Assembly (NCBI RefSeq): GCF_029873635.1
Contig: NC_080425.1
Coordinates: 39,869,390-39,933,389 of the forward strand
From: Malania oleifera
Taxonomy: Eukaryota; Streptophyta; Magnoliopsida; Santalales; Ximeniaceae
Direction: 5' to 3'
Length of the DNA: 64,000 bases
The first letter of the stretch is position 1. Each line of letters begins with the position of its first letter. Below, one piece after another: positions 2,195 to 32,457 of the stretch. The notes beneath the pieces are model-generated. The model saw only the letters and a program-made list of their open reading frames with translations. It ran no database searches and was not told the DNA's origin. A program made the position numbers and the translations under genes.

Positions 2195-2360
2195 CTGAGC
2201 TGACATCCTCAGGCTCCTACATGTACCTCAGGTGCCTAAGCCTCAAACCTCAGGCGACCGAACAACTCCTGTCTGTTGAAATTTCACCTAGGAAATTCTT
2301 CAGGCGCCTACACTTATTCTCAGGTGCCTGAAGTCACGGAGTTCTTTTATTTAAAACACA
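2195..2360 (+). promoter_or_regulatory. Internal palindromic-motif array and TATA-like element upstream of second ORF
   Basis: At least six diverged copies of a motif resembling CTTCAGGCGCCTGAAG lie at about 2203-2340 (for example CCTCAGGTGCCTAAG, CCTCAGGCGACCGAAC, CTTCAGGCGCCTACAC, CTCAGGTGCCTGAAG). They are followed at about 2347-2358 by TTTATTTAAAAC, a plausible TATA element, about 190 bp before the second ORF. The same motif type occurs in this element's own 3' LTR at 4688-4885. A promoter role is inference. Confidence 0.5.
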
Positions 2361-2542
2361 TGAAACCATATTTCAGTTATACTCTAGGCTCCTAAACTAA
2401 GACTCTCCACTTACCCGAAGTGCCAAACGTCTTACCCCCTTTCAATTTCCAGTGATAAAATCTTAGATTTCAAGCCTCCAAGTTCGATTATACATACTCT
2501 AGGGTTTGAAAGGAACCTTTTGCTACTCAAGGAAACCTCATA

Positions 2543-3541
2543 ATGCCTCAAACTAAGCAAACGACTAGTCGTGGTTCATCCTCTGGTAAAGATGACCCAA
2601 ATATTGAACAATGGTTGGTATCTTCTCAATCTAAACATCGGTATAAAACTAGACTCCTTACAGTTGAACCAATCTTTGGTAAGATACTTGACCTCCAGTT
2701 CTTCAAACCTGAATTTCCTGAGATTTTATCCTTGTTCCAAAACATTGGCTGGAAAAACTTCATTGAGTATCAAGCAAAGGGGACCTTTCCTAACTTAATA
2801 AAAATTTTCTATGCAAACATGACTCTTGAAGAAAATTCTTTTTCAACGGAGGTGAAGGGTAAGAATATAGTGCTTTCTCTTGAATCTTTAGCATCTATTC
2901 TAAATGTCTCTCCTGGAAATTTTGAATGTCCAACATTAGGTCAATCATGGATGCTTCAACAAAATTTTACACTTGAGGAATTTTTGCCATTGGTCATGGA
3001 GAATGGACCAACTTACTTTGGGAATCCACCATTGTATAAGCAACTAAACCTCAAAGCACAAATTCTCCAAAAAATTATCACCAACAACATTCTACCACAA
3101 GCTAGATCCTACGACCATCTTTCGTATGCCGATTGTTTTGTTACGTGGTGTTTGTTAAAAGGAAAGAAACTTGATTTAACTAGCCTTATCAGAAAATGGA
3201 TGTGGGCAAAGCTTGATGCATCTCGAATTACGCTTCCTTACGGTGGAGCTCTCAGTCTTCTTTTTTCAAAATTAAGTGTTGCCTCACCGATAAACCTGTT
3301 CATCAAGAGGACTAGATATGAACTCTTCACCTCAACTACTCTCAAACAGATGGGATATGAAAAACGGAATCAGGAGTGGTTCTTGAAAGGGGGAAGACAA
3401 CGAAGAGTAGCTACTGCACCTCCTATTTCACCTTGGACTCAGCCACAAGAATCTGTAATTGAAACTCCTTTTTGGTTCATGCCATTCTATAATGAATTCA
3501 CATCTTTTAGTCAAGATATGCGTGATGTCTTAAATCCATAG
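2543..3541 (+). CDS. Second ORF of family A element, putative plant transposon protein domain
   Basis: An intact 332-aa ORF starting at the first ATG after a non-coding leader. The N-terminus (about 1-35) is Ser/Gln-rich. The core (about 45-260) resembles the plant transposon protein family known as Transposase_32 (PF20167): LGW-type IGWKNFIEYQ near 68-77, FPNLIKIFYANM near 82-93, RSYDHLSYADCFVTWCLLKGKKLDLTSL near 190-217 and LPYGGALSLLF near 233-243. No DDE catalytic triad is evident and the biochemical function is unknown. The C-terminal block TTLKQMGYEKRN...WF...PFYNEFTSFS matches a remnant at 31715-32130 (minus) in the family B element. It is one of very few undamaged ORFs in the window. 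The family assignment is from memory of the family's look and needs an HMM search. Confidence 0.75.
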   Translation: MPQTKQTTSRGSSSGKDDPNIEQWLVSSQSKHRYKTRLLTVEPIFGKILDLQFFKPEFPEILSLFQNIGWKNFIEYQAKGTFPNLIKIFYANMTLEENSFSTEVKGKNIVLSLESLASILNVSPGNFECPTLGQSWMLQQNFTLEEFLPLVMENGPTYFGNPPLYKQLNLKAQILQKIITNNILPQARSYDHLSYADCFVTWCLLKGKKLDLTSLIRKWMWAKLDASRITLPYGGALSLLFSKLSVASPINLFIKRTRYELFTSTTLKQMGYEKRNQEWFLKGGRQRRVATAPPISPWTQPQESVIETPFWFMPFYNEFTSFSQDMRDVLNP

Positions 3542-3547
3542 ATCAGC

Positions 3548-3594
3548 AAGAAGAAGAAGAAGAAGAAGAAGAAGAAGAAGAAGAAGAAGAAGAA
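3548..3594 (+). repeat. (AAG)n microsatellite, probable decayed acidic tail of second ORF
   Basis: About 15 AAG/GAA units begin six bases after the stop of the second ORF. In the frame CAG CAA GAA GAA the tract reads QQEEEE and continues as LSNPKEKELLKTVTLTRM, whereas the ORF's own frame would read poly-Lys. The related family B remnant ends in an acidic run, so the tract may once have encoded the C-terminal tail. Confidence 0.7.
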
Positions 3595-4239: not shown

Positions 4240-5060
4240 TGTTGACTCTATGAGTCCAATCTGATTTTTGATAATAAAAAATCACTTGATATTTGATCTG
4301 TGCATTGAGTTTGTGAATAGGACTTACATTGAGCATGTAAGGAAAGATAACGGGTCATGGACGCCATAAAGAAAAGCTAATACATATTAGAAAGTACCAT
4401 GGAACTCAAAGAGTATGAGAATCAAGATGCAAGTGGCAAAATTCAAGAATGTCTTGGGAATGGGTATTTAGAATTCATGTACCTACATTTTCGTATGTTT
4501 TATCTTGAGGCTCAATACAACTTAGAATGATTTTAGGATTCATGCATTTCATGTACATCATTAGAGTACTTACATGGGCTTAGAAATGTGTTTAAAATAA
4601 TGGAAAACTTGTTTTATAAAAGACCCAAGCAAAGAATTAAAGTAGAATTTTAAACTGGAAATGAATATGTGTGAAAGAGGGGACTTCGGTAGCCTGAAGT
4701 TATCCTCAGGTGCCTGAAGAATTTCTTCAGTAGCCTGAACATTAAGTTCGGTAGCCTGAAGAATTAAATGGAAAATACAGAACTTGTGAGAGGTACCTCG
4801 GTCGCCTGACATTGGAACCTCAGGCGCTTGAAGTTGACACTTCAGGAGCCTGAAGTCGAGTTCGGTTGCCTGAACTCACGGGAAAGCCTAAAAATCAGTT
4901 CTTTATTAAAAAGACGCGCGAGGACTCTTATTGATCCAACGGCTGAGATCAATCCTAAGGGTCATATACTATATATTATGAATATCTAAACAAAAAAATT
5001 TTCTATTTTTCAGGTTATTTTTCAAAAATACTTTGCTCTTTTGCTTTGTTTCTTTATAAA
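4240..5060 (+). repeat. 3' LTR (5' part) of family A element, truncated
   Basis: Starts TGTTGACTCTATGAGTCC after the polypurine tract and matches LTR starts at 28279 and 63322. It includes a motif array at 4688-4885. The U5 half seen at 1-498 is missing. The sequence runs into an inverted family B LTR end near 5065. The junction is placed by eye and could be off by about 40 bp. Confidence 0.75.
4688..4885 (+). promoter_or_regulatory. LTR palindromic-motif array (CTTCAGGCGCCTGAAG type)
   Basis: About nine diverged copies: TTCGGTAGCCTGAAG, CCTCAGGTGCCTGAAG, CTTCAGTAGCCTGAAC, TTCGGTAGCCTGAAG, CTCGGTCGCCTGACA, CCTCAGGCGCTTGAAG, CTTCAGGAGCCTGAAG, TTCGGTTGCCTGAAC. The consensus is close to self-complementary. 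It lies in U3, where Sireviruses are known to carry palindromes. Confidence 0.7.
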
Positions 5061-5064
5061 AAAT

Positions 5065-5483
5065 ATATTTTTCAAGGTTTTAAAACAAGGTTTCAAAGTC
5101 CAAGACAAACCCTAAAGTGCTTCAAACCATTTCACATGATATTTGAATATGAAGTACTTACAAAGTTCATCCTAAAACCTTAAATACTCTAAGCTTGAAG
5201 TCTTTATGGTGTCTCTACTTTGAGTCCTCTCAGACTTGAGCTTGAGTCAGCTTTAAGATTTCCACAAGCTTTGATCATTTTGGTTCACTTGAGCTTCCTT
5301 TGGATCACTTTGAAGATAAGTGTGGCTTTATGGTCCTTGGTGATCTTTGAACTTGCATTTCCTTTGACCTTTTGAACTTTGTTAATTAAGCATTCTTGAA
5401 ACATAATCACTTAACAACACATATTAAATCAACCTTTATTTGTTATCACCAAAACGAGATTCGAAAGCCATGTTAGGTCAACA
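5065..5483 (-). repeat. Family B Sirevirus LTR end fragment, inverted
   Basis: The last bases (about 5440-5483, ending GTTAGGTCAACA) are the reverse complement of the family B LTR start at 60288 (TGTTGGCCTAACATGAC). The upstream text, with its Ser/Leu-like CTTGAGCTT and TTGATCACTT phrases, matches 41470-41798. Only about 420 bp of the ~1.8-kb LTR remains, fused to the broken family A LTR. Confidence 0.78.
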
Positions 5484-7220
5484 CAGGTATTTTCTATTTT
5501 TACTTCAGTGGGGACACTGAAGTCTTTAGTTGGGGGTTATGGGGTTAGGAAGGCACTATACGTAGCATCTAGGGCACAAATATGACATGTTTTTAAATTT
5601 TTAGTGAACAATGTATGCAGTATGCCATGATAACACACTTTATGCCCTTTACATACTTTTATATAACATTTGTGTTACAATTTCAAGATGTATCTTGTAA
5701 ATGACTTGATTATGCTCACCAACAATGAAGTGATTTGTTTATGCATAGTTTCATAAGGTATAGTTAGTGTTCCTGTTTGGCAACTCAATGAGGGTTGATT
5801 AGGGGTTCATTCGCTTTAATGTTGTTATATAAGTTTTAGTATTTACATAGTGTATTACAAGGTTGAGTCAACACTTTCACATGATTTGTTTCACTTAGGT
5901 GTCCTTGTGAGCACTGAGAGAACAACTGTGGTGACTATGACACCTTGTGAGGATTTTGTTGAGTCCTTTGTTTTTTGTGAGAGTCATTTACATAAACTCT
6001 GAGTTCATGAAACTCAACCTTTCCTCACCAGATGTTCTTTATATGCTAGTATTGATATTTGAGTTGCTAGCCTAAAGGTGATGTCTAGTGGGAAGATATA
6101 AACCTAGGTCTTGTAGCCTACTCAAGACGTGAGTATTAAGCCACCCCTAGAGATGAGCATAATTCATGAACTTTATTTTTGAGTTTAGTTCCCCATCGGT
6201 AGCACGAAGACAATATAAGTTGTAATGATTGTCCTAACTGGCCATGAAAAAGAAAAAAAAAAAAAGAAAAAGAAGAATGAGTAGAAAGGAAAGAAAAAGA
6301 CAAAATGAGAAAAGCACGTAGATATCTGCTCCAAAATGAAAAAAGAAAAAAAAAAGAAAATGGCCAAGCTAGGGACACAACACATCACATTTTTGCACAT
6401 ATGAAGCTTATTCAGGTGTTCCAGTGCATATGTATGGATTCATAAATTAGTTTATGAATTATCAATCTAAGGTGGTCTTGGTAGGATGTGGCGAGTAGGT
6501 GAGAAGGCGCTAGGGTGAAGGACCTGAAACTTCGTTATTACGCTGGATTCCATTCTTATGAGGATTAGTTCACTTCATTTTCATTGTTGGTTCTTTGATG
6601 TATGTGAGATGTTTGATCATGTATGTTTTTCCTCACATACAAGAGTGAACCCCTTTTTCATGAGTGTTTTTGAGAGTGTACCGGTGAGGCCGAGTTAAGA
6701 CAACCGTTTTGTAGGTATCCAAGGATGACTCGAGTGGGATGAATCATTCACTTTACATATGCCTTATGACTGTGCTTGTTTATACTCATATTTATATGAT
6801 GATATTAACTCTAAATTGGAATTATTGATTGACTCTCTAAGGGTTATGATTTTCTTAATAGTTGTATCTTGTTGAGACATGTATGAGTGATTTGTTCCAG
6901 AGTTGTCTTTATAATGGAGTTATTTCTCAAGGAGCATGATGGTAATAATGGCATGTATGTATATGTGAAATGGCATAGTTGTGCTACTTATTGATTTTAA
7001 TTGACATTCACTTGGATAGGTGTTTGTGGGTATCGCACTAGAAACCCTCACGAGACTATAACTCATCCACTAGAGCCACCTATGGGTTTAAAGCCTTGTT
7101 GCATATAGTAAATGCAATCGTGTTTCCCACGAAAGAGGAGGTAGATAAGAGTTTGTTTATCTTTTGTAGGTTTTTTAGTTTTTCTTTACTCGAGGACTAG
7201 CAAAGTGTAAGTTGGGGTTG
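5484..7220 (+). mobile_element. Athila-type Gypsy, 3' untranslated region of first copy
   Basis: Non-coding. From about 5510 it is collinear with 16183-17870 of the second copy (both begin near TTCAGT.GGACACTGAAGT and end GAGGACTAGCAAA...AAGTTGGGG). It includes an A/G-rich block at 6245-6365. Short ORFs here are low-complexity shadows. Polypurine tract AAGTTGGGGTTG at 7209-7220 precedes the LTR. Confidence 0.78.
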
Positions 7221-8767: not shown

Positions 8768-10100
8768 TGATGTGTCCCTAAAATGCACTATTTTAACCCC
8801 CCATTTACTTATGTTTTTTCCTAATTTATCTTGTATTTACCCTTTTTTATCATAATTCAGAGCTATAAATGGTTTGTTCATGTTTCAGGAAAATGAAGTT
8901 AAAACCAAGGATTTAAGCAATGTAAGAAGCCAAGGGAGAAATTAAGAAGCACAAGGCTCAACCAATTGCATAACCAAGTCCCCAAAGCCTTAGTTCATCA
9001 AAGAAAACAAGACCTTTCTTGACCATGTGGTACAAACAGCAAGCACAAGGAGTGACCAAGTCACAGAAGGAAGGCTCCTAGGTTTAGAGTGAAATTGAGA
9101 TGCTGAGAGGTTCAACCATTGGCGCAACCAAGTGATCCTGAGGGGTGACTAGGTCGGCTGAACAGAGACTGACTAAAGTTGAGATCTCGAGAGTTTTGAC
9201 TAGTGGCACGACTAGGAGACATATAGGCATGACCAGGTCAAGAAAGCCTGAAGTTTGAACCCTAGAATTCCCGCGAGTCTTGACCAAGGCGTGACTAGGG
9301 AAAGAACATGGTGCGACTAGGTCGCCAGGCACGAGCCCAACAATCTTCTTCATGAGATTTTTTGCAAAAAAGATTCTTGATTTGAATTCAAATGCTTGTA
9401 AACCCTTTTAGGTATAAAACCTAACTTCGAATATATGATTAAGGTTCCCCTTTGACCCTTCTTTTGTTAGTGATAGATCTAAAGAGTCTTTGGGTGCCAC
9501 TTAGATTAGATTTACTACTTTCCTTTCAATTTCATGTCTGGTTTAGATTCTGATTCTGCAAAGGCCTGTAACAACCTTTGAGTTCTGGGCGCTGCTGCAT
9601 AGATAGTTGGTCTTTGATTGTAATCCTGATCACTAGTGACAGGCCTACGAGTAGTAATTGAAGACATTTTCAATACATGCTTCTTTATTCTGCTTTGATT
9701 TAAATTTTGCACTTTTAATACCTTTTATTTAATTTCCATGCACTTTTACTTCTCTGATTGTGATGAAACCCTAGGGGATAGGATAGCATAGCTAGGGATT
9801 TAGTCATTTATACGTAAGAGGTTACAATTCCTATAGGGTGTTCTCATGCTTACTAGATAGGGTATAGCCTGGTTCGCGATCGTGCTCTGAACGATTGGTG
9901 CACCTTCGCTACCCTATGCCACTCGAATGGTTCACTTTACCATCTAATTTAGTATGGATAGCTAACTGAACATATTTATCGCGAATGGCATCCTAAGCTG
10001 GACAACTGCACTGAGTCCCTGAAGTTCAAAACCCGAGTCACTCCTTGTTCTAGTGAACTTGGGTGTAAACCAATTTATAGTTTAAAGTAATACATGTTTT
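8768..10100 (+). repeat. Athila-type 5' LTR of second copy
   Basis: Starts TGATGTGTCCCTAAAATG directly after the preceding LTR, with one intervening base. It is collinear with 17871-19351 through the array (8955-9335), TATAAAA (9413-9419) and the GGATAGGGTATA...CTACCC block. It lacks about 150 bp near 10000 that the other copies have, and its last ~50 bp differ, so the LTR end and primer site are not clear. The end coordinate is approximate. Confidence 0.78.
8955..9335 (+). promoter_or_regulatory. Motif array of Athila 5' LTR, copy 2
   Basis: Diverged GCGACCAGGTCG-type units such as GGGGTGACTAGGTCGG, GGCATGACCAGGTC, AAGGCGTGACTAGGG and GGTGCGACTAGGTCG. Many CG positions have become TG or CA, as expected from deamination of methylated cytosine. 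Confidence 0.62.
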
Positions 10101-10173
10101 GTTTTTCTTTATTTTCTTTTGTTTTTAATTTTTGTTTGATATTTGAAGTCTTGATTGTGAGCTACATGTGTAT

Positions 10174-12876
10174 ATGCTAGGTTTGTGCTCTTTGGATCCT
10201 GAGTTAGTGCCTATAGAACCCGAGATTGAGAGATCACATAGGTCAATTAGGAAGTCTACCTCTAGTCTTGAGTTAGCCGAGTATTTTGAACCCAAAGTCA
10301 TGGTTGAACATCAATTGGTTCCTGCCTTTCATGACTTGGAACCTTAAGCTCCCCACCGACTAGCGGCGGAAGAGCAACCTCTTTGGCCCCTTAGAGACTG
10401 CTTTACACCCAACGCATACACCTCACCTTCTTGTATCCGGTTTCCAAAGGTCGAGGCAGCACAATTTGAAATTAATACTTCTATCTTCTCAATGCTTTCC
10501 AACTTCTTTAGGAATTCGATCGAAAATCCAAACAAGCATCTAAATGAGTTTCTTAAAGTTTGTTCCACCGTCGCTATACCTCACTTTGGTGATGATGCCC
10601 TCCGATTAAGGCTATTCCCATTCTCTTTAAAGGATAAAGCCAAATATTGGTTGAAATCCTTAGATTCGAACTTGGTGACCAATTGGGCCACTATGCATTA
10701 TGAATTCCTGAAAAAGTACTTCCACATTGGGGAAACTAACCAGATGAGGAAGAAAATCACTACTTTCTCATAGATAGATGGGGAACAATTTTTTGAGACT
10801 TGGGAACGCTTTAGGGACCTCCTGCGTAAATTCCCTCACCATCAAGTCCCAAGGTGACAGTTAGTCCAAACCTTCTGTGAAGGTTTAGGAGAGTATAACC
10901 GGTCCATGGTTGATGTATCTTGCGGGGTTACTTTTCTCACGAAGCACGATAATAAGGTTTGGGCTCTCTTTGAGACCCTTGCCAAGAATTCTGATAAGCA
11001 TGCTGTTGCTATAGATAGACCCTACCAACCTTCTTCTTCCCATCCTAAAGGAGTTTATGAATTAGCCACTAGACATGACCTGGCACCTACCTTGCACACC
11101 ATCGGTAAGAAATTAGATCAGGTCTTGTCCCTAGGACAATCACTTCTGTCTGTGACATGCGCCGAGGTGTGTGCCATTTGCTCTGACCCCTCTCATACTT
11201 GCTATATCTGCCCCCATGTGTCTCCCACACCTGATTTTGTGCAGGAAGAAGTTAAGGCCACCTATAATTGGTACAATATGCCGACCAATGGTCCCTACTC
11301 TAACAAGTACAATCCTAGGTGGAGTAAACATCCTAACTTCTCTTGGAGGCCACAAGCTCCGGGTTTTCAAGCTCAAAGACCTCAAAAATCACCCACTGCT
11401 CCACCTCCTCACCCATTTAAGAATCCTCAAAATCCTTCTGTGTGTTCTCCCCTCAACAATCAGCGTTTCAACCACCATCTCCTCCTCAGCCCCAATATGA
11501 TAGATCTTTTCAAGAGATGGTGTTAAAAGCACTTAAGGGCATTAAGGCTGATCCCCAAGTGTATCAGCAACTACTCCACTCTTACTCCCAATCTATCGCC
11601 AAGTTAGAAGCCACCATGGGCCAACTAGCTACATCTTTGAGTGGGAGATATGAGGGTAAATTGCCAAGTTAGCCTCCAATGAATCCTAAAGGCTAGTATG
11701 GGTTAGAATGTGAGCCAGTTGCTAGTCCTTCATCATATCATAAGCAAGCCCAGGCTGTGACCATTCGTTAGAGTGGTAGGGAGGTAAATAATAGGGCTGG
11801 GGAGAAGTTAGACCAAGAAAAGGGTAGGGAGAAGACGAGGGAAGAGCCCGATGCTGAACCATGTAATCTTCCTTCCTCCAATATGGTAACTGATATCGAG
11901 ATACCTACCCCCTCCAATTTTGGAGCACTTCCCCATTATGTTCCTGTAGTGCCATACCCTGCAGCTCTTTATGCACCCTCGAAATATAAGAAAGAAAACA
12001 ATACTGAGTCCATTATGGACACATTCAGGCAAGTCAAGGTCAATATTCCTCTCTTAGATGATATCATGCAAGTGCTTGTGTATGCCAAGGTCCTCAAGGA
12101 CTAGTGCACACAAAAGTGCAAGTCAAGGATGCACATGAATAAACAAGTTAGGCTGACTGAGCATGTGAGCTTAATTATTTTAGGTCATATTCCTCCAAAA
12201 CTTAAAGACCCCAATGCTGCCACCATCTCATGAGTAATCGGAGATTACACTATTGATAGGGATCTTTTAGATTTGGGAGTGAGTGTGAACCTACTTCCCT
12301 ACTCGATCTACAAACAATTCAATTTAGGAGAGTTGAAGCCCACCCCAGTCACATTAAGCTTCGCCGACCGATCAGTGAAAAAACCCCGACGTGTGATAGA
12401 GGATGTTTTGGTCAAAATCAAAGAATTCTATTACCTTGTTGACTTTGTTGTCTTGGATATGGAACTTGCCGACCCAACCAAGGATCTGATCCTTATCCTA
12501 TTATGATGATCCTTCTTAGCTATGACTAATGCCTGCATCCAGTGTAGGATCGGGATCATGGATGTGTCCTGTGGTAATATGCAACTCTGACTGAATGTAT
12601 TTCATGCTTTCCAACATCCACCTGATGACGTCCAAGCTGTAGATGTTGAATTGATTAATGAATGTGTCAAGGGAGTGGCTCCCTCATTTTATTGGAGGGA
12701 CCCCCTTAAGGTGATACTTCATAGTGATAGCCCTTTCATATATGGCTTGGAGGACCAATATGAGCAAATCTTTGTCATTTATGAATCGGTCTCTAGCTTA
12801 AAGGCAGGGCTTTGGGTAAGTGAGAAATGGTTTAATGGGGTCATGTTGGAAGATACTCCTATTTTTGAACCAGGTT
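10174..12876 (+). pseudogene. gag-pro: Athila-type gag-protease polyprotein, degraded
   Basis: A broken open frame begins at ATG 10174 (or earlier) with a stop at 10345. The gag core at about 10480-10770 reads NPNKHLNEFLKVCST...LRLFPFSLKDKAKYWLKSL, a Retrotrans_gag signature. A downstream stretch (10906-11526) includes a Cys/His cluster CAICSDPSHTCYIC and YNMPTNGPYSNKYNP. After frameshifts, 11442-11672 carries IAKLEATMGQLATSLS. The protease region (12010-12506) shows VKVNIPLLDDIMQVLVYAKVLKD and LDLGVSVNLLPYSIYKQF, where DLG stands in the aspartic-protease DTG position. 12520-12876 continues through GRPFLAMTNA-like text to the protein's end. Reverse transcriptase, RNase H and integrase are absent. 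Multiple stops and frameshifts make it non-functional. Confidence 0.85.
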
Positions 12877-13037
12877 GAGTTCAAAATTAGCATTTATTGC
12901 GTCTGGCTAAAGACTGTAAACCTAGTGCTTCTAGGAGGTAACCCAATTGTATTTCTTATTTTTATTTCTTCTCCGAGTCCGTAGGTTTTCCATTGTAGAA
13001 TAGGTTAAGTTTAGGGTTCTTAGAATAGGTCATAGGT
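12877..13037 (+). other. Athila junction replacing RT-integrase
   Basis: Contains AAAGACTGTAAACCTAG...GGAGGTAACCC (about 12912-12945), which resembles the conserved non-coding stretch normally found just after integrase in Athila elements. Its position right after protease dates the loss of RT and integrase to a deletion inside pol. Confidence 0.55.
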
Positions 13038-13336
13038 TAGTTGAGGTGTGACTAGGGTGCGACCAGCACACATAGGTGTGACTTGGTCGAAGCCCTGAAA
13101 GTCTTCTGAACTTCCAAATTCCTATAAAGCTCAACTACGGTGCGAATAGCACTACCCCTGGCGTGACCTAGTTGAGCAACTAAATCTTCTGAACTTCCAA
13201 ATCACTGAGGAGTTCAATTAGGGCATGACCTGGTCGGGAGCCTATTTTCCTGATTTAGTTGGGGGTGCGACCAGGGCGTAACCAGAACAAAGCTGGTGCG
13301 ATCTGGTCGACCCAGTCAAAAATCATGTTTAAACTC
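13038..13336 (+). promoter_or_regulatory. Internal palindromic-motif array and TTTAAA upstream of Athila second ORF
   Basis: Copies include GGTGCGACCAGC, GGTGTGACTTGGTCG, TGGCGTGACCTAG, GGCATGACCTGGTCGG, GGTGCGACCAGGGCG and GGTGCGATCTGGTCGAC, the same type as in the Athila LTRs. It is followed by GTTTAAACTCC at about 13327. An 18-bp phrase TCTTCTGAACTTCCAAAT is repeated at about 13103 and 13185. Downstream sequence to 13700 is C/T-rich and leader-like. Confidence 0.5.
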
Positions 13337-13690
13337 CTTTTTCCTACAAAGCCCTAACCACTTGTTTTCCTTGTTCCTTCATCTCTCCTTTTTGTACCCA
13401 AGCCCCAACCTGGTCATCCAAGCCTCCTCCACCTTCCCAGAGCTCCGGTAATCCTTCGGTGACCTGCCCTATCTCCGGTCATCCCCTTCTTATGCGAAAC
13501 TTCATTCCTCATACCTAGGGTTTTGACCATTAATCTCCCTTGCGCACGAGGGCTTCTCTTCTACCCTTTTTGTGCCTGTATCCCTTCTGCTTCTTTATCT
13601 TCAACCTTCCACTTCGCCTTTATAGTTCTCCACCTTCATCGAGTTAGTTCATCCCCATTTAGCATTCTTTGATGATGCTGTGCAATTCAG
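13337..13690 (+). other. Pyrimidine-rich leader before Athila second ORF
   Basis: No ORF of substance. It is C/T-rich (CCCTAACCACTTG, CCTTGTTCCTTCATCTCTCC) and resembles a 5' untranslated leader, which suits a separate transcript for the second ORF. Confidence 0.4.
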
Positions 13691-13694: not shown

Positions 13695-15836
13695 CTAAGT
13701 TGCTTCCAAGCAACTCCAATCCTCACAATTTGCCTCCAAATGAAAAAAGGGTTTAGGATCAACCATGGGATGAGTCTTCGTCCCGGGTCCAACCATGCTC
13801 CACCTGTGCAGGGGACTACGAGGGGTCACGCGGCCTAGAGAGGGCCCATGTACAAATATAGACTTGTGCCCACCCTCACTAGAGATGCTGCGTAAAGGTT
13901 CTTCAGGGAGGAAGATGGACCATTATATGACCCCGCCCATCACCACATACCATCTAGTTTTGGTCCAGGAAGTCTATCAGAACCTATAACAAAAATAATT
14001 GGATAGGCATCTTGTCCACCGCTGTTCAGGGCATGGGGTTTGATTTGATGCCAACATTGATCGAGAGGGCATGGTCCCATGAGGAGGTAGATGATACACC
14101 GTGGGGGGCCCTCGACTCCTCAAAAGTCCACCACATCATCAGTCATTTGTTTCACGGCCTTTACTCTGATGGTGGTAATATGCAGTAAGGCACATGCATG
14201 GCACAGAGTAGGATACCCGATACCTGCTTCTTTTAGACTTGATCCTACAACGCAATATCTGCACATCTGGGCATCACTTTAAGAGGCGCGACATTCATCT
14301 GCAGGTTTTATACGCCGCGCACTAGAATAGAAATATAGAAATTCCTCAATTCATTATGGACGAGATGATCATGTTCTGCGAGAGGAATGTGAGGCACTCG
14401 AGGCTGAGGAGGCCTCTGCTGAGGCTAGTGCACATTCAGGCCACTAGGGGAAACGAAGAGGCCCCTCATTACATATGCCCAGCTCATCATGTCGATCCTG
14501 ATGTGCAAGAAGATAAACTTGGGCAATCTAGATGTGAACATCCCCATTGGAGAGGTCACCATTGAGTGGACATGGTGTTTGAGCCTAAATTTGGTGGCCA
14601 CAACACAGCTGAAAGTTCACTGGTGGGTAGCGCTTAAGGGTTAACCGGGGTTGAATTTCTAGTGCCCCTTTTCTATCATGAACTCAAGGAGCCAGCACAC
14701 TCACTAGTGCTACCACGTTGAAGAGTACAAAAGAAGAAGAGGAGGATGACTGTTGAGCCCTCCACCTTTGCTGTGACACCTTCAGAGCCAGCACCTCCAG
14801 TGTCGGCACCTCCTCCACCGGGATCCACCACTATGGAGGAGACAAAGGAGATGATTTCTCAGGGATTTGGAGCACTTGTAGAGGCAGTCTGAGTCTACTT
14901 CCTTAGTGCGTTGGTGACATTCAGATTTGCAGGGTTCGCAGCTTCAACCTCGACCCCTGGACCCTCAATTCCTCTTGCTCCTCCATCCCCCACAACTACA
15001 CAGGAGGTATCTTCCTTATCTTCTCCTCACCCATCACCAATTCTGCCTCCTTCAGGAGCTGTGCAGCTCCTGCTCCTCGATGCCCTCCACCACAGCCTGG
15101 CCATCAGTCTCCTGCACCACAGATTACTCCCCCAGCAAGTTTGGTGGTGATGATTGGGATAGAGATGAGCAGTGAGGATGAGCCGACGCCTCCTACTAAG
15201 GAGACATCTATGCTAGCCACTGATACCATGGGTGAGGCATAGTCTCTCGCGAGTCCACGTGTGCCCATGGATGTGCCACCCATAGGAGAGCTACCTACTG
15301 AGCTAACCGCTACTCCAGCATCTACGGTTGTTGCTGTAGAGCATGCGGAGGTGGAGCATGCCTATCCAGATCCCTCCATGATGATCGCTCTTATCTTACA
15401 TGTGGATATTTTGGTGCCCCCAATGACTCTTTCCATCGTCACACCTCCTATTCCTGGCCAATAACATGTATTGGCACAGATGTCGAGAAACCAGTACGCT
15501 AGAAGAGTAGCCACCTCATCTACTTGACCACCTTCTGTTTCCCTGTGTGCACCCACCCCAACCCTTCATGCTCCACCTGTAGCCTCAGTTTCGCACACAC
15601 CACCTTCTCTACCCACCCCACCCCTGCCTATTCCTACTAGCATTCCATCTGCGGCCTTAGCATCACCCGAATCACTAGCGGTATATGGTAGTTTTTTCAA
15701 CGAGGATGAGTCAGCTTCAAGACCGCAATCTGATGTGGCTCACTAATCTGATGTGAGCACTCCATCTGATGCGTCCGTTGATCTGGGGGGTGGCAATTCT
15801 GATTATGATGCCAGTTGTTCTACTGAGGAGGATTAG
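13695..15836 (+). pseudogene. Athila second ORF (env-like position), degraded
   Basis: Several short frames can be strung together: FGPGSLSEPIT, NNWIGILSTAVQGMGFDLMPTLIERAWSHEEVDDTPWGALDSSKVHHIISHLFHGLYSDGG (about 13990-14190) and TYAQLIMSILMCKKINLGNLDVNIPIGEVTIEWTW (about 14475-14575). A Pro/Ser/Thr-rich segment (14750-15660) and an acidic tail FNEDESASRPQSDVAH...NSDYDASCSTEED ending at 15836 follow. This is the place of the env-like ORF of Athila. No signal peptide or transmembrane segment is visible. The pattern is closer to the plant transposon protein type seen at 2543 than to an envelope. At least ten stops or shifts. Confidence 0.6.
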
Positions 15837-17870: not shown

Positions 17871-19351
17871 TGATGTGTCCCTAAAAGGCACTATTTTAGG
17901 CTCCCATTTACTTATGTTTTGTCCTCATTTATCTTGTATTTACCCTTTCTTATCATAGTTCAGAGTTATGCATGATTTGTTCATGTTTGAGGAAAATGAA
18001 GTTAAAGTCGAGGAGTTAAGCAACGCAAGAAGCCAAGGGAGAAATTGGGAAGCACAAGGCTTAACCAAGTGCTGAACCAAGTCCCCAAAGCCTCAATTCA
18101 TTGAAGCAAACAAGACCTTGCTCGACCATGTGGTACGACCAACAAGCACAAGGGGTGACCATGTCAAAGAAGGAAGACTCCAAGGTTCACACTGAAATGA
18201 AGATGCTGAGAGGTTCGACCATTGGCGCGACCAAGCGACCATGAGGGACGACCAGGTCAGTTGAATAGAGACTGACTAAAGCTGAGATCCTGAGAGTCTC
18301 GACTAGTAGTGTGACTAGGAGACCTATAGGCGCGACCAGGTCGAGGAAGCCTGAAGTTTGAACCCTAGAATTCCCGTGAGTCTCGACTAAGGGAAGAACA
18401 TGGTGCGATCAGGTTGCCAGGCATGAGCCCAGTAATTTTCTTCATGAGATTTTCTACAAAAATTTTTCTGATTTGAATTCAAATGCTTGTAAACACTTTT
18501 GGAGTATAAAAACTAGCTTCGAATATGTGATTAGGGTTCCCCTTTGGTCCTTCTTTGGTTAGTGACAAACATAAAGAGTCTTTGGGTGCCACTTAGGTTA
18601 GATTTACTTATTTCCTTTCAATTTCATGTCTGGTTTCGATTCATATTCTTTGAAGGCCTGGGAAAACCTTCGAGTTTTGGGTGCTGCTGCATAGATAAAT
18701 GGTTTTCGATTGTAATCTCGATTGCTAGTGACAAGCCTTCGAGCTACAATTGAAGCTGTTTTCAACACATATTTCTTTACTCTTCTTTGATTTAAATTCT
18801 ACACTTTAAAAACCTTGTCTTTAATTTCCATGCACTTTTACTTCTTTGATTGTGAGGAAACCCTAAGGGATAGGATAACATAGCTAGGGATTCAGTCACT
18901 TATATGTAAGAGCTTACGGTTCCTATAGGGTGTTCTCGTGCTCGCTGGATAGGGTATACCCTAGTTCCTATGATCGTGCTCCGGACCATTGGTGCACCTT
19001 TGCTACTCTATGCCACTCGAATGGTTCACTTGACCATCTAACTTAGTACAGATAGCTAATCGAACATAGTTATCGCAAATGACAGCCTAAGTTGAATTCA
19101 TTATTTGAGACCTGCTTTTTAATAGTAGTGTTAATGTAATTTACTTGCTTTCGTAGTTAATAGAAGCACCAGAGATCTCATTTTTTTTTCCTTTCATACA
19201 AAGTGTAGTAAATTAGGCTAGAAGTCATAAACAAATGCACTGAGTCCTTGAAGTTCGACAACCGACTCACTCCTTGTTCTACTGAACTTGGGCGTAAGTA
19301 GGTTATAAATATTATTTTTGGTAGTTAAGGACCCAATCCTTGGCAAGCCTA
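17871..19351 (+). repeat. Athila-type 3' LTR of second copy
   Basis: Collinear with 8768-10057. Includes the motif array (18045-18425), TATA box TATAAAAA at 18505-18512 and the closing text GTAGTTAAGGACCCAA.CCTTGGCAAGCC shared with the end of the first-copy LTR. The end is set from that match (CCTA here, CCCA at 8763-8766). Confidence 0.8.
18045..18425 (+). promoter_or_regulatory. Motif array of Athila 3' LTR
   Basis: Copies include GGCGCGACCAAGCGACC, GGGACGACCAGGTC, GGCGCGACCAGGTCG and GGTGCGATCAGGTTG. It keeps more intact CG than the 5' LTR array and stands about 80 bp upstream of TATAAAAA. Confidence 0.65.
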
Positions 19352-23839: not shown

Positions 23840-24780
23840 CAAATGACTGTTAAAGGAAAATGCTTGAAAATGAATGAAAATGATTTTAGTGCAGAGAATT
23901 CAAATGCTATGGATAGGTTATATTGTGCTTTAGATTCTAATGTCTTTCATAATATCTTGGCATGTAAAAATGTGAGGGATATATGGGAGGAGCTGGAAAG
24001 GAAATATGGAGAGATCCAGGAGATGGAAACCATCACTCCAAAAATGTCAAGCTTAACTGATTAGGATATGGTAAATCATGAGCAAATAGCATTAATTGAC
24101 AAAGAGGTATATGTATCTATCTCTACCTCTATTGATGATTCTAGTGCTAATTCTTTCAATATATTTTGTGTTGCATCGTTTGATAATACATGTGATAATC
24201 CTGAGTATGATGCAAGCAATGATTCATATGATAATAATTGTAATAATTCCTATGATGAATCATGTGCTAAATTGATAAATGGAAGCATGCCTTCATGTGA
24301 AAAATTGGAAAATGCTTTATTGAAAATGAATAAGTTTCTAGTTAGGATGAATAAGAAGAAAATATTTTTGAAAAATGAAAATGAAAGGATAGCTAAACAA
24401 TTAGAAAAAATGAAAAAAAAAAAAAAAGATCATGCTATTCTAGAGAAGAAAAAGATTAAGAAGATATTGAAAATTATCTTCCTAGAGAAAGAAGTAGATG
24501 ATTATTCTAGAGCTTCACTCAGAGTTAAAAAAGAAAAGAATAATCATGTAAAACCCCTAGAAGTTAAAAAGAAAAATATTTTCAAAAAGGGTTCATGTTT
24601 AGGTTATCAAACCCATAGTCTTGCTTCATCAAGTAAAAATGAAACAAATAATCATAATATTTCACTTGCTTATTTTGTAAAAGAAAAGGGCACATTTGGT
24701 TTAATCATCCATTTAGAGGTGCCAGAGGCATAGATAAGAAAATGATATGGGTAATTAGAAAGGCAAACCTTGTAGGACCT
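23840..24780 (+). pseudogene. gag: gag of second family A Sirevirus, 5'-truncated and broken
   Basis: Two frames, 23843-24064 and 24068-24733, are separated by a stop at 24062. The first reads MNENDFSAENSNAMDRLYCALDSNVFHNILACKNVRDIWEELERKYGE. The second begins VNHEQIALIDKEVYVSIS, has Asn/Asp/Ser-rich text, a Lys-rich coiled coil and SLAYFVKEKG. A shifted frame near 24688-24780 continues as GHIWFNHPFRGARGIDKKMIWVIRKANLVGPKENGFN, the end of the nucleocapsid, with the zinc-knuckle Cys residues lost. As at 554-1582 it moves straight from the WEELER block to the EVY block, so both family A gags lack the same UBN2 core. 5' LTR and gag start are missing. Confidence 0.8.
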
Positions 24781-27700: not shown

Positions 27701-28263
27701 GTATGTAAAAATGCATGCTAACTAGCTAGACCGAATTTATATTCAAACATACATGTGCTATCATAAGCAGTATGTTTTCAAACTCCATTCTTTTCCGGGT
27801 CTTATGATATGTTTTAATTGCAATGGTATGAAGATATTTCTGGTCTGACCATGTTTGTCTTGTTATTTTATCTTAAATGACCAACTATACTATTTTGTAT
27901 GCAATAATGCCAAATATTTTTAAAGCAATTATAAAACTATTTGCTATGGCTAGTTTCTTTTTAGGCTATTTTTCTAAAGCTAAGAGATTTTTTCTCTCAA
28001 GTTGTTTTACACTTAGCTTAACCCTTTTTGTTGACATTAAAAGAGGGAGAAATGTACTTACAAAATTGGGGTATAGATGTATATTTCGTATTTGAGTATT
28101 AGTCTTGATACTTGAGCTTAAATGGCAAACTTGAATGCTTTTTGTATTTGAAATGTCTTCTTTTATAGATATTCTTGATCTACATTAAAAATTTGAAATT
28201 ATGCATATTCTTAAGGGAGCCTTCTTAGGCCATACCCACTTTTACATTTATATTTTTCATCAT
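24781..28263 (+). other. Family A internal non-coding region without pol or second ORF
   Basis: About 3.5 kb of AT-rich DNA. Begins with an AGGGGGAGTG tract at about 24842 and holds GGGGGAGTT near 27267. No pol motif was found on either strand. A 103-aa ORF at 25568 has no recognisable domain. No motif array occurs here, unlike the element at 1-5060. An 11-bp-stem hairpin lies at 26962-27003. Confidence 0.6.
26962..27003. other. Inverted repeat, 11-bp stem
   Basis: ACCATACTGAT (26962-26972) and ATCAGTATGGT (26993-27003) are perfect reverse complements around a 20-base AT-rich loop. Significance unknown. Confidence 0.6.
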
Positions 28264-28278
28264 AAAAAAGGGAGAGAT
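28264..28278 (+). other. Terminal polypurine tract of second family A element
   Basis: AAAAAAGGGAGAGAT directly precedes the LTR start TGTTGACTT at 28279. Confidence 0.85.
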
Positions 28279-29254
28279 TGTTGACTTTTTGAGTCCTATC
28301 TCGTTTTGATCATGAAAAATACAAAGTATCTTACCTATGCATTGAGTATTTGAATAGAATCATCATTTAGCACACATGGATGGTAAGGTACAAATGAAAG
28401 CAATGAGGATCGGAAAGATCATGTCATCTAGCATATGGCATGGCATTTGAAGTGCAAAACGAATGAAGTCCATTTTTGTTAATTGTAATCACATTAAATT
28501 TTTGCTTTGAATCTATAATAATATGGTATGTAATAATGCATTACATGCATGATAGGATTTAATGCTTAAAGGCCATAAATTGACCTTAGGTCCCTAAGCA
28601 CTTCATGAAAAATCCCTTAAGCTTAAATGCCATACTTATACAAACAGGGATAAATCTTATAAGGTCAAAGATAAGCAATACCTTGATTCTTTGAGGGCCT
28701 TGGTCGACCGTCCTTTTGGCGTTATAAATGCCTTAGTCAATCGACCAGGCCAGAAGTCAAATGTTTGACTTGGCTCGGCCGACTGACCTATTTTTGAACT
28801 AAGCTTCCACGGTTGACCGACCTTTAAAATTGACTTTTTCTACCTGCCCTGATCCACCGAACTTTTAGTTTAAAAACACCTCATCCTACAAAACCTACGA
28901 AGGTTTGGGAAATTGCCTTGGCTCAGCCAATCGACGCCTCGCATGGCAAACCGAACCCAAAAGTAAATTCAAAATCTTTAAGTGAGGTCAACCGACTAAT
29001 CCTTGCTCCAGTCGACCGAAGCTCTTGGATTCCCCAATTTTTTATTGCGTTAATCAGAATTATTTTTAATTAAACATTTCCAAAATACTGGTCGTGTCCC
29101 TAACGGTAATATTTTTTGGGAAACTATATACTCCTTTTCCTCTGATTAGCAATAGATTAGCACAAAATCCTCTTAAAATTCTTAAGCTATTTTTTACACT
29201 CTTGCAAGCACATACTACTCTCTTGCTCATTGTCTTGTGAAATTTATTTAAGAG
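28279..29254 (+). repeat. Family A 3' LTR, left part
   Basis: Starts TGTTGACTTTTTGAGTCCTATC, close to 63322. Includes a GGTCGACCGA-type array at 28690-29035. It is interrupted at 29254 by the family B element and resumes at 41799. Confidence 0.85.
28690..29035 (+). promoter_or_regulatory. LTR motif array, GGTCGACCGA type (family A)
   Basis: Units include TTGGTCGACCGTCC, TCAATCGACCAGG, GGCTCGGCCGACTGACC, ACGGTTGACCGACC, AGCCAATCGACG, GAGGTCAACCGACTAA and CCAGTCGACCGAAGC. It differs from the CAGGCGCCTG type of the family A element at 4240. Confidence 0.72.
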
Positions 29255-31088
29255 TGAAAAGCTAAGGTGTTCTCCCAAGAAGGGGGGTGAATTGGGATTT
29301 AAAACTTTCTTTGAAACTCTTTTTATAAATTCTTTCTCAACTAATTTTTGGATTCAACAATCACACATGTATGATTTGATTTTCAATTCACAAGATCAGT
29401 CAAGACACAATTTAATTTAAATATTTATGGATGAGTATTTAATTTGAATTCTTTGTAAGTTTCCCAATATTTCTTTCAGCAAGTTAAACCAAAACTCAGT
29501 AAGTCAATTCAATCAATCAAGATAAGCTTCATAATATGAATCAATATAGATATTCCAGTAAGCCCCAAGATTCTGATTTTAATATTGGATTCAAGTATGT
29601 AGTAGATGCATGAATGACCTATATTAATCAACATACTCCCTTAGAAGGTTTCCGCGAGATTTAATCAACGTACTCCTTTAGAAGGTTTTCGCAATTCTCA
29701 ATCACAAATTAATTTCAAGCAGTTCAATAAGCATCCACACAGTTTATATATGTTTTGAAATTTAAAAGAGAATAGGGAAGAGAGTGACACCGAGATTTTT
29801 ACGAGGTTTGGCTATACGCGCTTATGTCCTCGCCTTAGGTACACCACCCAAGGATTACACTATACCACTCCTTTAACCGGACGGAGCAAACCGTTTACAT
29901 ACTCCTTCAAGTAGGATGTCCTCTCCAAGCGATACCCCACACTCAATATTCCAACGATTCAATAATCCTGAACCATAAAAAAACAACAAGAACAAGAAAA
30001 ATTCTTTTGTACAAAGACACTCTCAAAATAAAGCTTATTAGTACAAGATTAAACACAACTAATATACTTCAATTTAAATATCAATAAATAATGATTTGAA
30101 GCTCAAGAAATTAATCACCGGGTTCTTCTTTAAATTGAAAAAATCTCAGTAAGAGCACAATAACCATATGGTTGTATCAGTAGAAACTTCGTAATACTTC
30201 AAAAAAAATGTGTAAGCAAGAAAGCTTTTGAAGAGTGAGAGCAATATAGCTTTGATTTGCTGATTGTAATTATTGATGTATGAAATCTTTTGGTTTTTCA
30301 TGTATTTATAGTTAAAATGTAATTTTTTTTCATATTGCCCAATTTGCTTGGAGTGTTTTCCAAGTTTTTACAAAGTTTGGGGTCCAAGAAATCTAATTTG
30401 AAAACTTTTCTTCATTATTTAAAAATAGCCGTTACGAAGTTTAGTTGACTAGATTTATCGGGGTCAGTCGACTGGACTTTGAAAATCAGCGAAAAATCAA
30501 ATTCAGAATGGGGTCAATCAACTAGACTCATAGGGCTCAGTCGACTGGGCCTATTCTATCTTCCAAAAAATGCTTCAGCATAAATGTCTGTCGCTTGACC
30601 ATAATGGTTCAGTCGCCTGGATAGGTAAAGCTCATGCTTTTAATTTTGTTTCCAAAAACTTTTGCCAAATTGTTTTGAGACTTTTGAAAATGTTTTTCGG
30701 GGTTTTCAAAATTTGGTCTATAAGTCAATAATTAATCCTAATGAACTTCAAAGCATCCATATTGACTTTTAATTGAAGTACATACATAAGACTTTCTTAA
30801 GACTTCAAAACTTTCTAAACAAGAAGTCTTCATGTATGTCTTTCTTTGAGTCCATCTTGACTTGAGCTTCAATATCCTTTAAGCTTTCATAAGATTTGTC
30901 TTTCTTTGATCGTTTGAGCTTTCTTTTGATCACTTGTCTTTAGAATGTAGGCTTTTATAACACTTGTGATCACTTGATCTTGAACTCTAATGCTTGATTC
31001 CTGAAACATGATCACTTTAACCAAAACATGTTAAATTCCCTTGATTTGTTTTCATAAAAATAAGATTCGTAAGCCTCATTAGGAAAAA
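29255..31088 (-). repeat. 3' LTR of family B Sirevirus
   Basis: On plus coordinates it begins TGAAAAGCTAAGGTGTTCTCCC and ends near AAGCCTCATTAGGAAAA, the reverse complement of the LTR start. Collinear with 39976-41798 and with the solo LTR at 60288-62132. TATA box (TATAAATA on minus) at 30303-30310, array upstream of it at 30435-30625. Confidence 0.87.
30435..30625 (-). promoter_or_regulatory. LTR motif array, CAGTCGACTGG type (family B 3' LTR)
   Basis: Units on plus: TAGTTGACTAGAT, CAGTCGACTGGAC, CAATCAACTAGAC, CAGTCGACTGGGC, TGTCGCTTGACC and CAGTCGCCTGGAT. On the minus strand it ends about 125 bp upstream of TATAAATA (30303-30310). Confidence 0.72.
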
Positions 31089-31700
31089 AATATCCTCCTT
31101 TTTGATAATGACAAATGAGGAGCAAAAGTGAGTGAACGTTGATAAGGCTCCCCCTCAATAAGCACACTTATAGCAATGTTTTGAAAAAAATAATCATTCA
31201 TATAATCAAATAGTTCGAGATTCAATTTCAGATTCCATGTAAGTTCAAGATCTATATATCAATCAAGTATCAATGTATCATAGTTCATATCATCCTATCA
31301 GTATTAGCAACATCATATCATGTCTTATATCATCATATCTTCATCATGGTCATATTCTTTTTCGGTTTTACCTCAATTTTGCATTTAATCTTAATTTTGC
31401 TCAAATTTCTCAACTTTGCATTTTATATCCTCAATGTTGCTATTCATCTCAAATTTTCTAGTTATCTCAATTTTGCTCACACTTTCTCCCCCTTTGGACA
31501 TCAATCAAAAAGAGAAAAGTGACAAAGTAAAGCAAGCATAGACACAAAATAGCACATAAAAAAAATAATCATATTCATCCAGAGGTGTATACAGTGTCAA
31601 AAACATCTGGAGATACAAACCAAAGTAAAAAAAAAAAAAAAGAAATAGAAAAATGAAAAGCAAGTACAAATAGATAACTGAGATACATAACACAAAATGC
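31089..31700 (-). other. Family B 3' non-coding region with multiple polypurine tracts
   Basis: Plus-strand pyrimidine blocks TCCTCCTTTTT (31093-31103), CTCCCCCT (31148-31155) and TCTCCCCCTTTGG (31485-31497) are polypurine tracts on minus. The order and surrounding text mirror 4017-4239 of the family A element. Confidence 0.68.
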
Positions 31701-31714
31701 AATAGAAAGAGATA

Positions 31715-32135
31715 TCAATCATCATCAGCTGCATCATCTGCATTTTCTTCAGTGCTTTCATCATCACTTTCATTTTCCTCAGAGTCCTCATCAGATGCAT
31801 CATCACTGGGAGGTACAAAGCTGATGTCCATAGGATCTACTCTTTGTGAGGAACTAGCTTGATGATGTTCCATACGACTAAGTCACTGGTCAAGTGAGGA
31901 ATAGGTAGACTGAAGTGAGGCAAAGATTTCCTAAAGAGACTGAAGTCCTAAACACATATCACTACTGAAAGTAGTGAACTGATGATGGAATGGAATAAAC
32001 CAAGAAGGAGCTTTAAGCTCGGGTTCTTGTTGCTGATCAAGAGCTGGTCCAGTTGCTTGTCTTGGTGGTCGTCTTCCTTTTAGAAACTAACCCTGCTCAT
32101 GTTTTTCGTATCCCATTTGTTTTAGGGTTATGGAG
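31715..32135 (-). pseudogene. Second ORF of family B element, C-terminal remnant
   Basis: Minus-strand reading from about 32125: KQMGYEKHEQG, FLKGRRPPRQATGPALDQQQEPELKAPSWFIPFHHQFTTFSSDM, then after stops DPMDISFVPPSDDASDEDSEENES and a further Asp/Glu-rich run to about 31718. It aligns with the C-terminus of the ORF at 2543-3541 (KQMGYEKRN, FLKGGRQRR, PFWFMPFYNEFTSFSQDM). The N-terminal and central domains are deleted, between leader-like DNA and the KQMGYEK block. The acidic tail is retained. Confidence 0.72.
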
Positions 32136-32457
32136 GAGAAAAGATCGTATCAATGTAGATCATGAGAAGGGAGTTCGGGTGAGTGATGAAATAGGGTTAG
32201 TTGACTGGAATCTGAAAAGTTAGGGTTTTTCGCGAAGGAGTATTTAAAGTTCTGTCAATCTAGTCACCTAGGGTTCTGAGGTTAGTTGCTTGACAATTAG
32301 CGAATTTTAATTTTTATAAGTCAGTAGCTTGTTAGTCGACTAGGGTCATAGGCTCAGTCGCCTGACCTTACCAATCTTTCAAATAAACTCTTTTCACTCA
32401 TCATGTATCCTTCCTAAACAACTTCCCTACTATGTAATAGGCCAAGTTCTCTTCTTA
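32136..32457 (-). promoter_or_regulatory. Internal motif array and TTTAAA upstream of family B second ORF
   Basis: Array at about 32255-32375 on plus: TCTAGTCACCTAGG, TTAGTTGCTTGACAA, TTAGTCGACTAGGG and CTCAGTCGCCTGACC, the same type as the family B LTR. In the minus direction it is followed by ACTTTAAATACTCC (TATTTAAA at 32241-32248 on plus) and a leader with ACCCTAAC text, then the ORF remnant. Confidence 0.5.

What the first reader, a model, noticed from the sequence alone, without database searches (positions are those of the whole stretch)
2195..32457. Second array plus TATA-like box inside three elements, each time just upstream of the second ORF
Family A (2195-2360, ORF 2543), Athila (13038-13336, ORF from ~13695) and Sirevirus B (32241-32375 on minus, ORF remnant 32135-31715) all have an internal array, then TTTAAA, then a leader, then the second ORF. 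Each internal array is of the same motif type as that element's own LTR array. The gag-only element at 23840-28278 has no second ORF and no internal array. This looks like a dedicated second promoter, controlled like the LTR.
Basis: partly seen in the sequence, partly recalled or inferred. Interest (0 to 1): 0.88.

Follow-up and report, generated by a model that had tools for sequence, protein, structure and literature searches.

The report
Second promoter-like array in plant retrotransposons
Three jumping elements in this plant DNA each carry, just in front of the place of their extra gene, a second copy of the short palindromic boxes that sit by their main promoter, which probably gives that gene its own switch; this was already reported for one group of such elements but, as far as the searches here show, not for the other.

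Summary
Box models trained on LTR arrays find box clusters in 64 kb only in 10 LTRs and at three internal places: 2187-2331, 13048-13319 and 32260-32365 (minus), each upstream of the second ORF, its remnant or its former position. Each internal array scores best with its own family's LTR boxes, 3 of 3; 0 of 400 control windows reach those scores. The gag-only element has neither second ORF nor array. Limits: the Athila-like "ORF" is decayed and unidentified. B keeps only a C-terminal remnant. TTTAAA follows in 3 of 3, but the LTRs' own TATA box is placed differently. The family A ORF is PF20167.

For Sireviruses this is in print: Bousios et al. 2010 (PMC2829016) describe palindromic LTR boxes repeated upstream of ENV and discuss an internal promoter. 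Apparently new: the same layout in a Ty3/gypsy-type element, its retention in two elements without detectable pol, and internal boxes that track each family's own LTR variant. Best reading: a second promoter sharing the LTR's factor. No transcript data; splicing from the LTR is not excluded.

The parts
1..498 (+). 3' end of family A 5' LTR (C-rich integrase signal near 461; ends CA)
   Evidence: sequence read; similarity to Sirevirus LTR ends
504..512 (+). primer-binding site TATCAGAGC of family A after TTTGG
   Evidence: sequence read; matches the Sirevirus junction described in PMC2829016
554..1582 (+). gag ORF of family A (PF14223)
   Evidence: (E 1.9e-6)
2187..2331 (+). internal array of family A, 6 boxes of type TCAGGCGCCTGA
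2350..2355 (+). TTTAAA, 19 bp after the last box
2375..2542 (+). ATG-free stretch before the second ORF, with telo-box at 2500 and acceptor-like sites at 2387 and 2452
2543..3541 (+). second ORF of family A, 332 aa, PF20167 Transposase_32
   Evidence: (E 6e-20)
4240..5062 (+). family A 3' LTR (5' part), after PPT AGGGGGAGAT
   Evidence: sequence
4686..4873 (+). LTR box array of family A, 8 boxes
8768..10068 (+). 5' LTR of Athila-like element
8970..9325 (+). LTR box array of Athila-like element (GCGACC-W-GGTCGC), two cluster rows
10348..10770 (+). gag piece of Athila-like element (PF03732)
   Evidence: E 9.8e-8
13048..13319 (+). internal array of Athila-like element, 8 boxes
13328..13333 (+). 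TTTAAA, 9 bp after the last box
13695..15743 (+). decayed, formerly coding-like region (second ORF position); family not identified
   Evidence: GC 0.45-0.53 over 13.5-16.0 kb against 0.35-0.39 after 16 kb; no retroelement family in 24 of 24 pieces
17871..19349 (+). 3' LTR of Athila-like element with box cluster 18227-18417
29255..31083 (-). 3' LTR of Sirevirus B with array 30441-30620
31715..32149 (-). second-ORF remnant of Sirevirus B (starts at the equivalent of A residue 259), acidic tail
   Evidence: (54% identity over 68 aa, E 9e-17)
32243..32248 (-). TTTAAA, 12 bp after the last box
32260..32365 (-). internal array of Sirevirus B, 4 boxes (one more, weaker, at 32197)
35744..36310 (-). 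reverse transcriptase piece of Sirevirus B (PF07727)
   Evidence: E 1.8e-43
39976..41796 (-). 5' LTR of Sirevirus B with array 41170-41327
23870..24733 (+). gag of the gag-only element; no second ORF, no internal array downstream
28279..29254 (+). 3' LTR (5' part) of the gag-only element with array 28700-29019

Best explanation
The internal arrays are U3-type enhancer arrays of a second, internal promoter. Each drives, or drove, a short mRNA for the accessory gene at the envelope position (PF20167 in family A). Because the boxes are the element's own LTR boxes, one DNA-binding factor switches on both the full-length RNA from the LTR and the accessory mRNA. Shown here: the arrays, their position, their match to their own LTR, and the absence of comparable clusters elsewhere outside LTRs. 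Inferred: that they bind a factor, that transcription starts there, and that TTTAAA or a start site near it is the core promoter.
For: Outside LTRs the only box clusters in 64 kb are the three in front of the second ORF or its place: 6 of 6 non-LTR rows, out of 27 rows. Own LTR class is best in 3 of 3, with 0 of 400 control windows. TTTAAA lies 9-19 bp on in 3 of 3 and a telo-box octamer within 200 bp in 3 of 3 (background 7.4% per position; the telo-box test was chosen after looking). The 168 nt before the intact ORF have no ATG. Family A has no pol, and the 960 bp between gag and ORF2 hold 21, 33 and 13 stops in the three frames, so readthrough as in SIRE1 cannot serve it. Bousios 2010: among elements with boxes, linker boxes are present in 9 of 9 ENV+ and 0 of 4 ENV-.
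Against: There is no canonical TATA[AT]A within 260 bp of the internal arrays (0 of 3), while LTRs have it (9 of 9). Once boxes are masked, internal and LTR regions are only weakly alike (z 1.4-3.6 on the same strand), and for family A the unmasked match is no better on the same strand than on the reverse (z 7.3 v 8.4), so a plain copy of the LTR promoter is not shown. The Athila-like and B leaders hold 4 and 1 ATGs. Bousios et al. could not conclusively identify a promoter there. Elements with the ORF and no boxes exist (7 of 16 by their tables). No transcript was examined. The Athila-like ORF is unidentified.
Confidence: 0.58

Rival explanations
1. ORF2 is expressed by splicing of the LTR transcript, as reported for Bagy2 and predicted for Athila; the internal array lies in the intron and is an enhancer or has no role in ORF2 expression.
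For: Acceptor-like sites (pyrimidine-rich tract then YAG) lie in all three leaders: A 2387 and 2452, Athila-like 13440 and four more, B 32205. That is 8 sites where the window average gives 2.95 (Poisson P 0.011). PMC2829016 states that splice acceptors are predicted for BAGY2 and Athila, and PMC7264820 that splicing has been reported for Bagy2.
Against: Windows of like pyrimidine content hold 5.1-9.8 such sites per kb, which gives about 6 for these leaders, so the excess is mostly composition. Splicing needs no array and does not explain why the array follows the LTR's motif and lies only in front of ORF2.
Confidence: 0.22
2. The arrays are chromatin sites (anti-silencing islands) rather than promoter parts: a protein bound to LTR and internal arrays keeps both non-coding regions unmethylated, as VANC proteins do on VANDAL elements, whose motif arrays lie in introns and upstream regions.
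For: VANC21 motifs form arrays in non-coding regions of its own family and evolve with the protein (PMC5735166 passages). CpG o/e is above the window's 0.38 in 12 of 12 arrays measured (0.41-0.99). Bousios 2010 finds RM clusters bordering CpG islands.
Against: VANC21 motifs lie in one orientation, these are palindromes. Conserved spacing to a TATA box in LTRs (86-88 bp in Athila-like, 131-133 in B) looks like promoter anatomy, though copies of one family are not independent. Not exclusive of the best explanation.
Confidence: 0.12
3. The internal arrays are a by-product: LTR-derived sequence copied into the linker by recombination or template switching, kept by chance.
For: Unmasked internal-LTR alignments are strong on the same strand for Athila-like (z 6.7-8.9, reverse 0.5-1.5) and one B LTR (z 7.9, reverse 3.4); the other two B LTRs give 4.5 v 3.8 and 4.0 v 4.0, and A 7.3 v 8.4. 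Same-strand similarity exceeds reverse-strand in 6 of 6 masked comparisons.
Against: Same position in three families here, and in 9 of 9 box-bearing ENV+ Sireviruses in print. Box-masked similarity is weak, so the boxes are kept better than the sequence between them.
Confidence: 0.05

Closest known systems
Sirevirus repeated motif (RM) boxes upstream of the ENV-like gene (Bousios et al. 2010, PMC2829016; parts 1-4 of 7 read)
   Same: Palindromic boxes in the LTR upstream of a TATA box, repeated in the linker in front of ENV; family-specific sequence; internal-promoter idea. Their Vitis box CGGTCGACCG is the core of the gag-only/45-kb/63-kb LTR class here.
   Different: They report it for Ty1/copia Sireviruses and call it absent from the other copia elements tested. 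Here it is also in a Ty3/gypsy-type element, in two elements without detectable pol, and TTTAAA follows the array.
Foamy virus LTR plus internal promoter, both bound by Tas (PMC12282171, abstract and introduction passages seen)
   Same: Two promoters in one element, the inner one serving accessory genes, both under one DNA-binding factor.
   Different: There the inner promoter's product is the factor itself; here the factor is unknown. Not a relative.
VANC/VANDAL anti-silencing system (PMC5735166, passages seen)
   Same: Element-specific short motif arrays in non-coding regions; different families with their own motifs.
   Different: DNA transposon; VANC21 motif lies in one orientation; the protein is known to bind.
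Grande accessory gene 'transcribed from its own promoter' (Gomez-Orte 2013, title seen in reference lists only)
   Same: A plant LTR retrotransposon gene with its own promoter.
   Different: Antisense gene (on Grande) in another element; no LTR-type boxes mentioned in what was seen.
Sunflower Athila 14 aORF(+) with PF20167 and predicted nuclear localisation (PMC11728184, passages seen)
   Same: Same Pfam family as ORF2 of family A.
   Different: No promoter array described in the passages seen.

Membership tests
Sirevirus (family A) | 5' LTR/PBS junction CA + ATTGG-like + TATCAGAGC | tested here: met
   CA/TTTGG/TATCAGAGC at 497-512; criterion; first intervening base differs
Sirevirus (family A) | AGGGGGAG PPT, AT, then TG of the 3' LTR | tested here: met
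   AGGGGGAGATTG ending at 4241; criterion
Sirevirus (family A) | copia-type gag | tested here: met
   PF14223 E 1.9e-6
Sirevirus (family A) | RT placing it in the Sirevirus clade | not testable with these tools
   no pol in the element
Sirevirus (family A) | palindromic LTR boxes with CGG-CCG signature | tested here: inconclusive
   boxes are palindromic but CAGGCGCCTG, not strictly CGG..CCG
Sirevirus (B) | copia gag and RT | tested here: met
   PF14223 E 1.7e-27, PF07727 E 1.8e-43; clade within copia not tested
Athila lineage (8768-19349 element) | Ty3/gypsy-type gag | tested here: met
   PF03732 E 9.8e-8; that this family marks gypsy-type gag is recalled
Athila lineage (8768-19349 element) | RT/integrase of the Athila clade | tested here: inconclusive
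Athila lineage (8768-19349 element) | env-position ORF of PF20167/ATHILA kind | tested here: not met
   no such family in 24 of 24 pieces; alignment to A protein barely above control; the gene is decayed
PF20167 Transposase_32 (A ORF2) | score above Pfam cutoff | tested here: met
   72.3 bits, cutoff 45
foamy-virus-like self-activated internal promoter | inner product binds both arrays | not testable with these tools
   no binding data; single-sequence fold pLDDT 37.8, unusable

The most novel reading that the evidence does not exclude
The second ORF encodes the factor that binds the boxes: a nuclear, element-encoded activator or anti-silencer that switches on both its own internal promoter and the LTR, as Tas does in foamy viruses or VANC on VANDALs, arrived at in both copia- and gypsy-type plant elements. 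Box and protein would co-evolve, which would explain why each internal array seen here carries its family's own LTR variant. 'Envelope-like' would then be a misnomer.
Probability: 0.2. Interest if true: 0.88.

Novelty: new variant of a known kind. Interest (0 to 1): 0.52.

Why it matters
How plant 'envelope-like' genes are expressed and what they do is still open (stated as controversial in PMC2829016, PMC3414828 and PMC7264820). If LTR and internal arrays share one factor in both superfamilies, the question becomes directly testable: find the protein that binds the boxes. If that protein is the second ORF's product, these elements are self-activating, and the gene is a regulator rather than an envelope. 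It would also offer a reason why elements without pol keep this gene.

Tried and rejected
Homologues: protein searches with ORF2 gave one relative, P0001 of Malania oleifera, a gene model that runs from gag into the middle of ORF2. It skips ORF2's N-terminal half and its support is unknown, so I did not count it for or against splicing. The gag search gave none. tblastn of the RT and ORF2 proteins against the held loci (121 records) gave no hit. Structure: single-sequence model pLDDT 37.8, discarded; no PDB sequence match.

Unseeded motif search was uneven. It worked for A. For Athila-like it gave a low-information motif, although the internal array was still the top cluster. For B at width 12 it failed (internal 5.2, best elsewhere 17.6), while widths 14 and 16 gave 21.5 and 21.7 with the 63-kb LTR array higher (35.0 and 37.1). 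The class of gag-only-type LTRs was set up after one search pointed to 45241.

Rejected: SIRE1-type readthrough for family A (no pol; 21, 33 and 13 stops in the three frames between gag and ORF2). A transmembrane envelope for A ORF2 is not supported by the highest 19-residue Kyte-Doolittle mean of 1.54 (the usual 1.6 cut-off is recalled). A simple shared CGACC half-site across all families fails: the A internal, A LTR and B internal arrays carry 1, 1 and 0 copies (the B LTR arrays were not counted).

Changed on checking: I had first called the density of acceptor-like sites in the leaders ordinary. Against the window average it is not (8 v 2.95); against pyrimidine-matched windows it nearly is. 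I moved the best explanation from 0.60 to 0.58 and splicing from 0.20 to 0.22. I had also first scanned only 15 of the pieces of the Athila-like element; searches scanned the rest (42 of 42 listed).
Full report
What is there. The window is plant DNA full of nested LTR retrotransposons. The only protein relative found for the second ORF is from Malania oleifera, so the host is probably that species or a relative; this is not proved. Self-comparison and sequence reading give the following. Family A is a Sirevirus-like element (PBS 504-512, gag 554-1582, second ORF 2543-3541, 3' LTR from 4240) without pol. An Athila-like Ty3/gypsy-type element runs 8768-19349. A gag-only element has gag from 23870 and a 3' LTR from 28279. 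Sirevirus B is on the minus strand, 41796-29255. Further LTRs lie at 7221, about 43910-45909 (minus), 60290 and 63322; the last three are named by similarity.

Test of the observation. An unseeded motif model trained on the family A LTR array alone finds the internal array 2187-2331 as the best cluster outside that LTR at three widths, and 0 of 300 shuffles reach its score. Four box classes were then trained on LTR arrays only: A TCAGGCGCCTGA, B TCAGTCGACTGA, G TCGGTCGACCGA, Athila-like GCGACC-W-GGTCGC. A scan of all 64 kb gave 27 cluster rows of score 15 or more. All 27 lie in 10 LTRs or at the three internal arrays, and the 6 rows outside LTRs are the internal arrays. That LTRs score is by construction; that nothing else does is the result. 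Each internal array scores highest with its own LTR class, 3 of 3, and 0 of 400 control windows reach it. A, B and G boxes are one palindrome, CRGKCGMCYG, with two symmetric variable positions (my reading of the class consensuses), and each internal array has the variant of its own LTR.

Second ORFs. Family A: 332 aa, PF20167 at E 6e-20. B: the part matching A residues 259-326 and a downstream acidic tail remain, with internal stops. P0001 also ends in an acidic tail. Athila-like: a GC-rich decayed region. Pfam finds no retroelement family in 24 of 24 pieces and no convincing similarity to the A protein was found, so this second ORF rests on position and composition. Gag-only element: no second ORF, no array. 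In the Athila-like element 42 of 42 stop-free pieces between 10147 and 17846 gave gag (PF03732, one piece) and no RT or integrase; decay could hide them. Two of the three array carriers thus seem to lack pol but keep gag, internal array and the second ORF or its place.

Core promoter. TTTAAA starts 19, 9 and 12 bp after the last internal box. Chance per site is 4.1%, or 12.6% for any of seven TATA-like hexamers. In 9 of 9 LTRs tested (the 63-kb LTR was not tested) TATA[AT]A lies 86-171 bp after the last box, with tight spacing inside families (86-88, 131-133). About 30% of positions have one within 260 bp by chance. Internal arrays have none within 260 bp, 0 of 3, which by that background is expected about a third of the time. 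So the boxes are shared with the LTR, the core promoter is not shown to be. TTTAAA after the LTR arrays: B 18, 18 and 29 bp; A 206; the 45-kb LTR 102; none in the gag-only and three Athila-like LTRs within 260 bp. Each internal leader has a telo-box octamer within 200 bp (3 of 3; background 7.4% per position). In family A, 168 nt before the ORF have no ATG (4.4% of windows), but one ATG lies just upstream at 2360, and the Athila-like and B leaders hold 4 and 1. The telo-box and ATG tests were chosen after looking and are supporting, not decisive.

Origin of the internal array. Unmasked alignments to the own LTR favour the same strand clearly for Athila-like (z 6.7-8.9 v 0.5-1.5) and one B LTR (7.9 v 3.4), little for the other two B LTRs (4.5 v 3.8, 4.0 v 4.0), and not for A (7.3 v 8.4). 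With boxes masked, z falls to 1.4-3.6 on the same strand against -0.3 to 1.3 on the other, six comparisons, the solo B LTR not included. That suggests old duplication or shared design with boxes kept by selection; it does not prove either.

What is known. Bousios et al. 2010 (PMC2829016, parts 1-4 of 7 read) describe Sirevirus palindromic boxes in LTRs and in the linker, 77 of 79 linker copies upstream of ENV. Boxes are in the linker of 9 of 9 box-bearing ENV+ elements and 0 of 4 ENV-. They cite an earlier internal-promoter hypothesis and say they could not conclusively identify one. From their Tables 2 and 3 I count 7 of 16 ENV+ elements with no boxes listed, so the ORF does not require boxes. 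The same table shows ENV- elements sharing nearly the box of an ENV+ element from the same host (Osr8 and Osr10 of rice; OPIE-2/PREM-2 core and HOPIE of maize), which fits a factor acting in trans, host- or element-encoded. I found no report of such arrays in Athila in the search listings or the passages read; most subscription papers are not held. PMC11728184 (passages) reports a sunflower Athila ORF with PF20167 and predicted nuclear localisation 0.80, which fits a regulator better than an envelope. PMC12282171 and PMC5735166 give the two-promoter and array-binding precedents.

Mechanism. Most likely a second promoter whose enhancer is the LTR's box array, so that one factor controls both (0.58). 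Splicing from the LTR with the array intronic is the main rival (0.22): acceptor-like sites exist in all three leaders, 8 where the window average gives 2.95, though their pyrimidine content explains most of this. Readthrough from gag or pol is excluded for family A by its anatomy. Whether the factor is the host's or the second ORF's own product cannot be told here. The latter is the most novel reading (0.2).

Verdict. Its Sirevirus half is already in print; the gypsy-type case, the carriers without detectable pol and the tracking of each family's own box are the additions. One window and one internal array per family limit all of this.

Noticed in passing
60288-62130: B-type LTR that looks solo, flanked by a 5-bp repeat GAAAG.
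   Followed up: partly
28279-29254 and 41797-42925: Sirevirus B appears to be inserted in the 3' LTR of the gag-only element; the LTR's 3' end seems to resume near 42400-42925.
   Followed up: partly
5062-5484: First 420 bp of a B-type LTR in reverse orientation, joined to family A's 3' LTR on one side and abutting an Athila-like 3' fragment (5484-8764) on the other.
   Followed up: partly
31715-31870 (-) and P0001: The second-ORF product seems to end in a long acidic tail; in family A a stop comes first and an AAG/GAA run follows it.
   Followed up: no
43910-45909 (-): Another Sirevirus-type LTR with a dense CGGTCGACCG-type array, no PBS or PPT seen beside it in the sequence; probably solo.
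   Followed up: partly
33770-34154; 56939-58327; 21345-22590: Tandem arrays with units of about 27, 106 and 57 bp; no box cluster lies in them.
   Followed up: no
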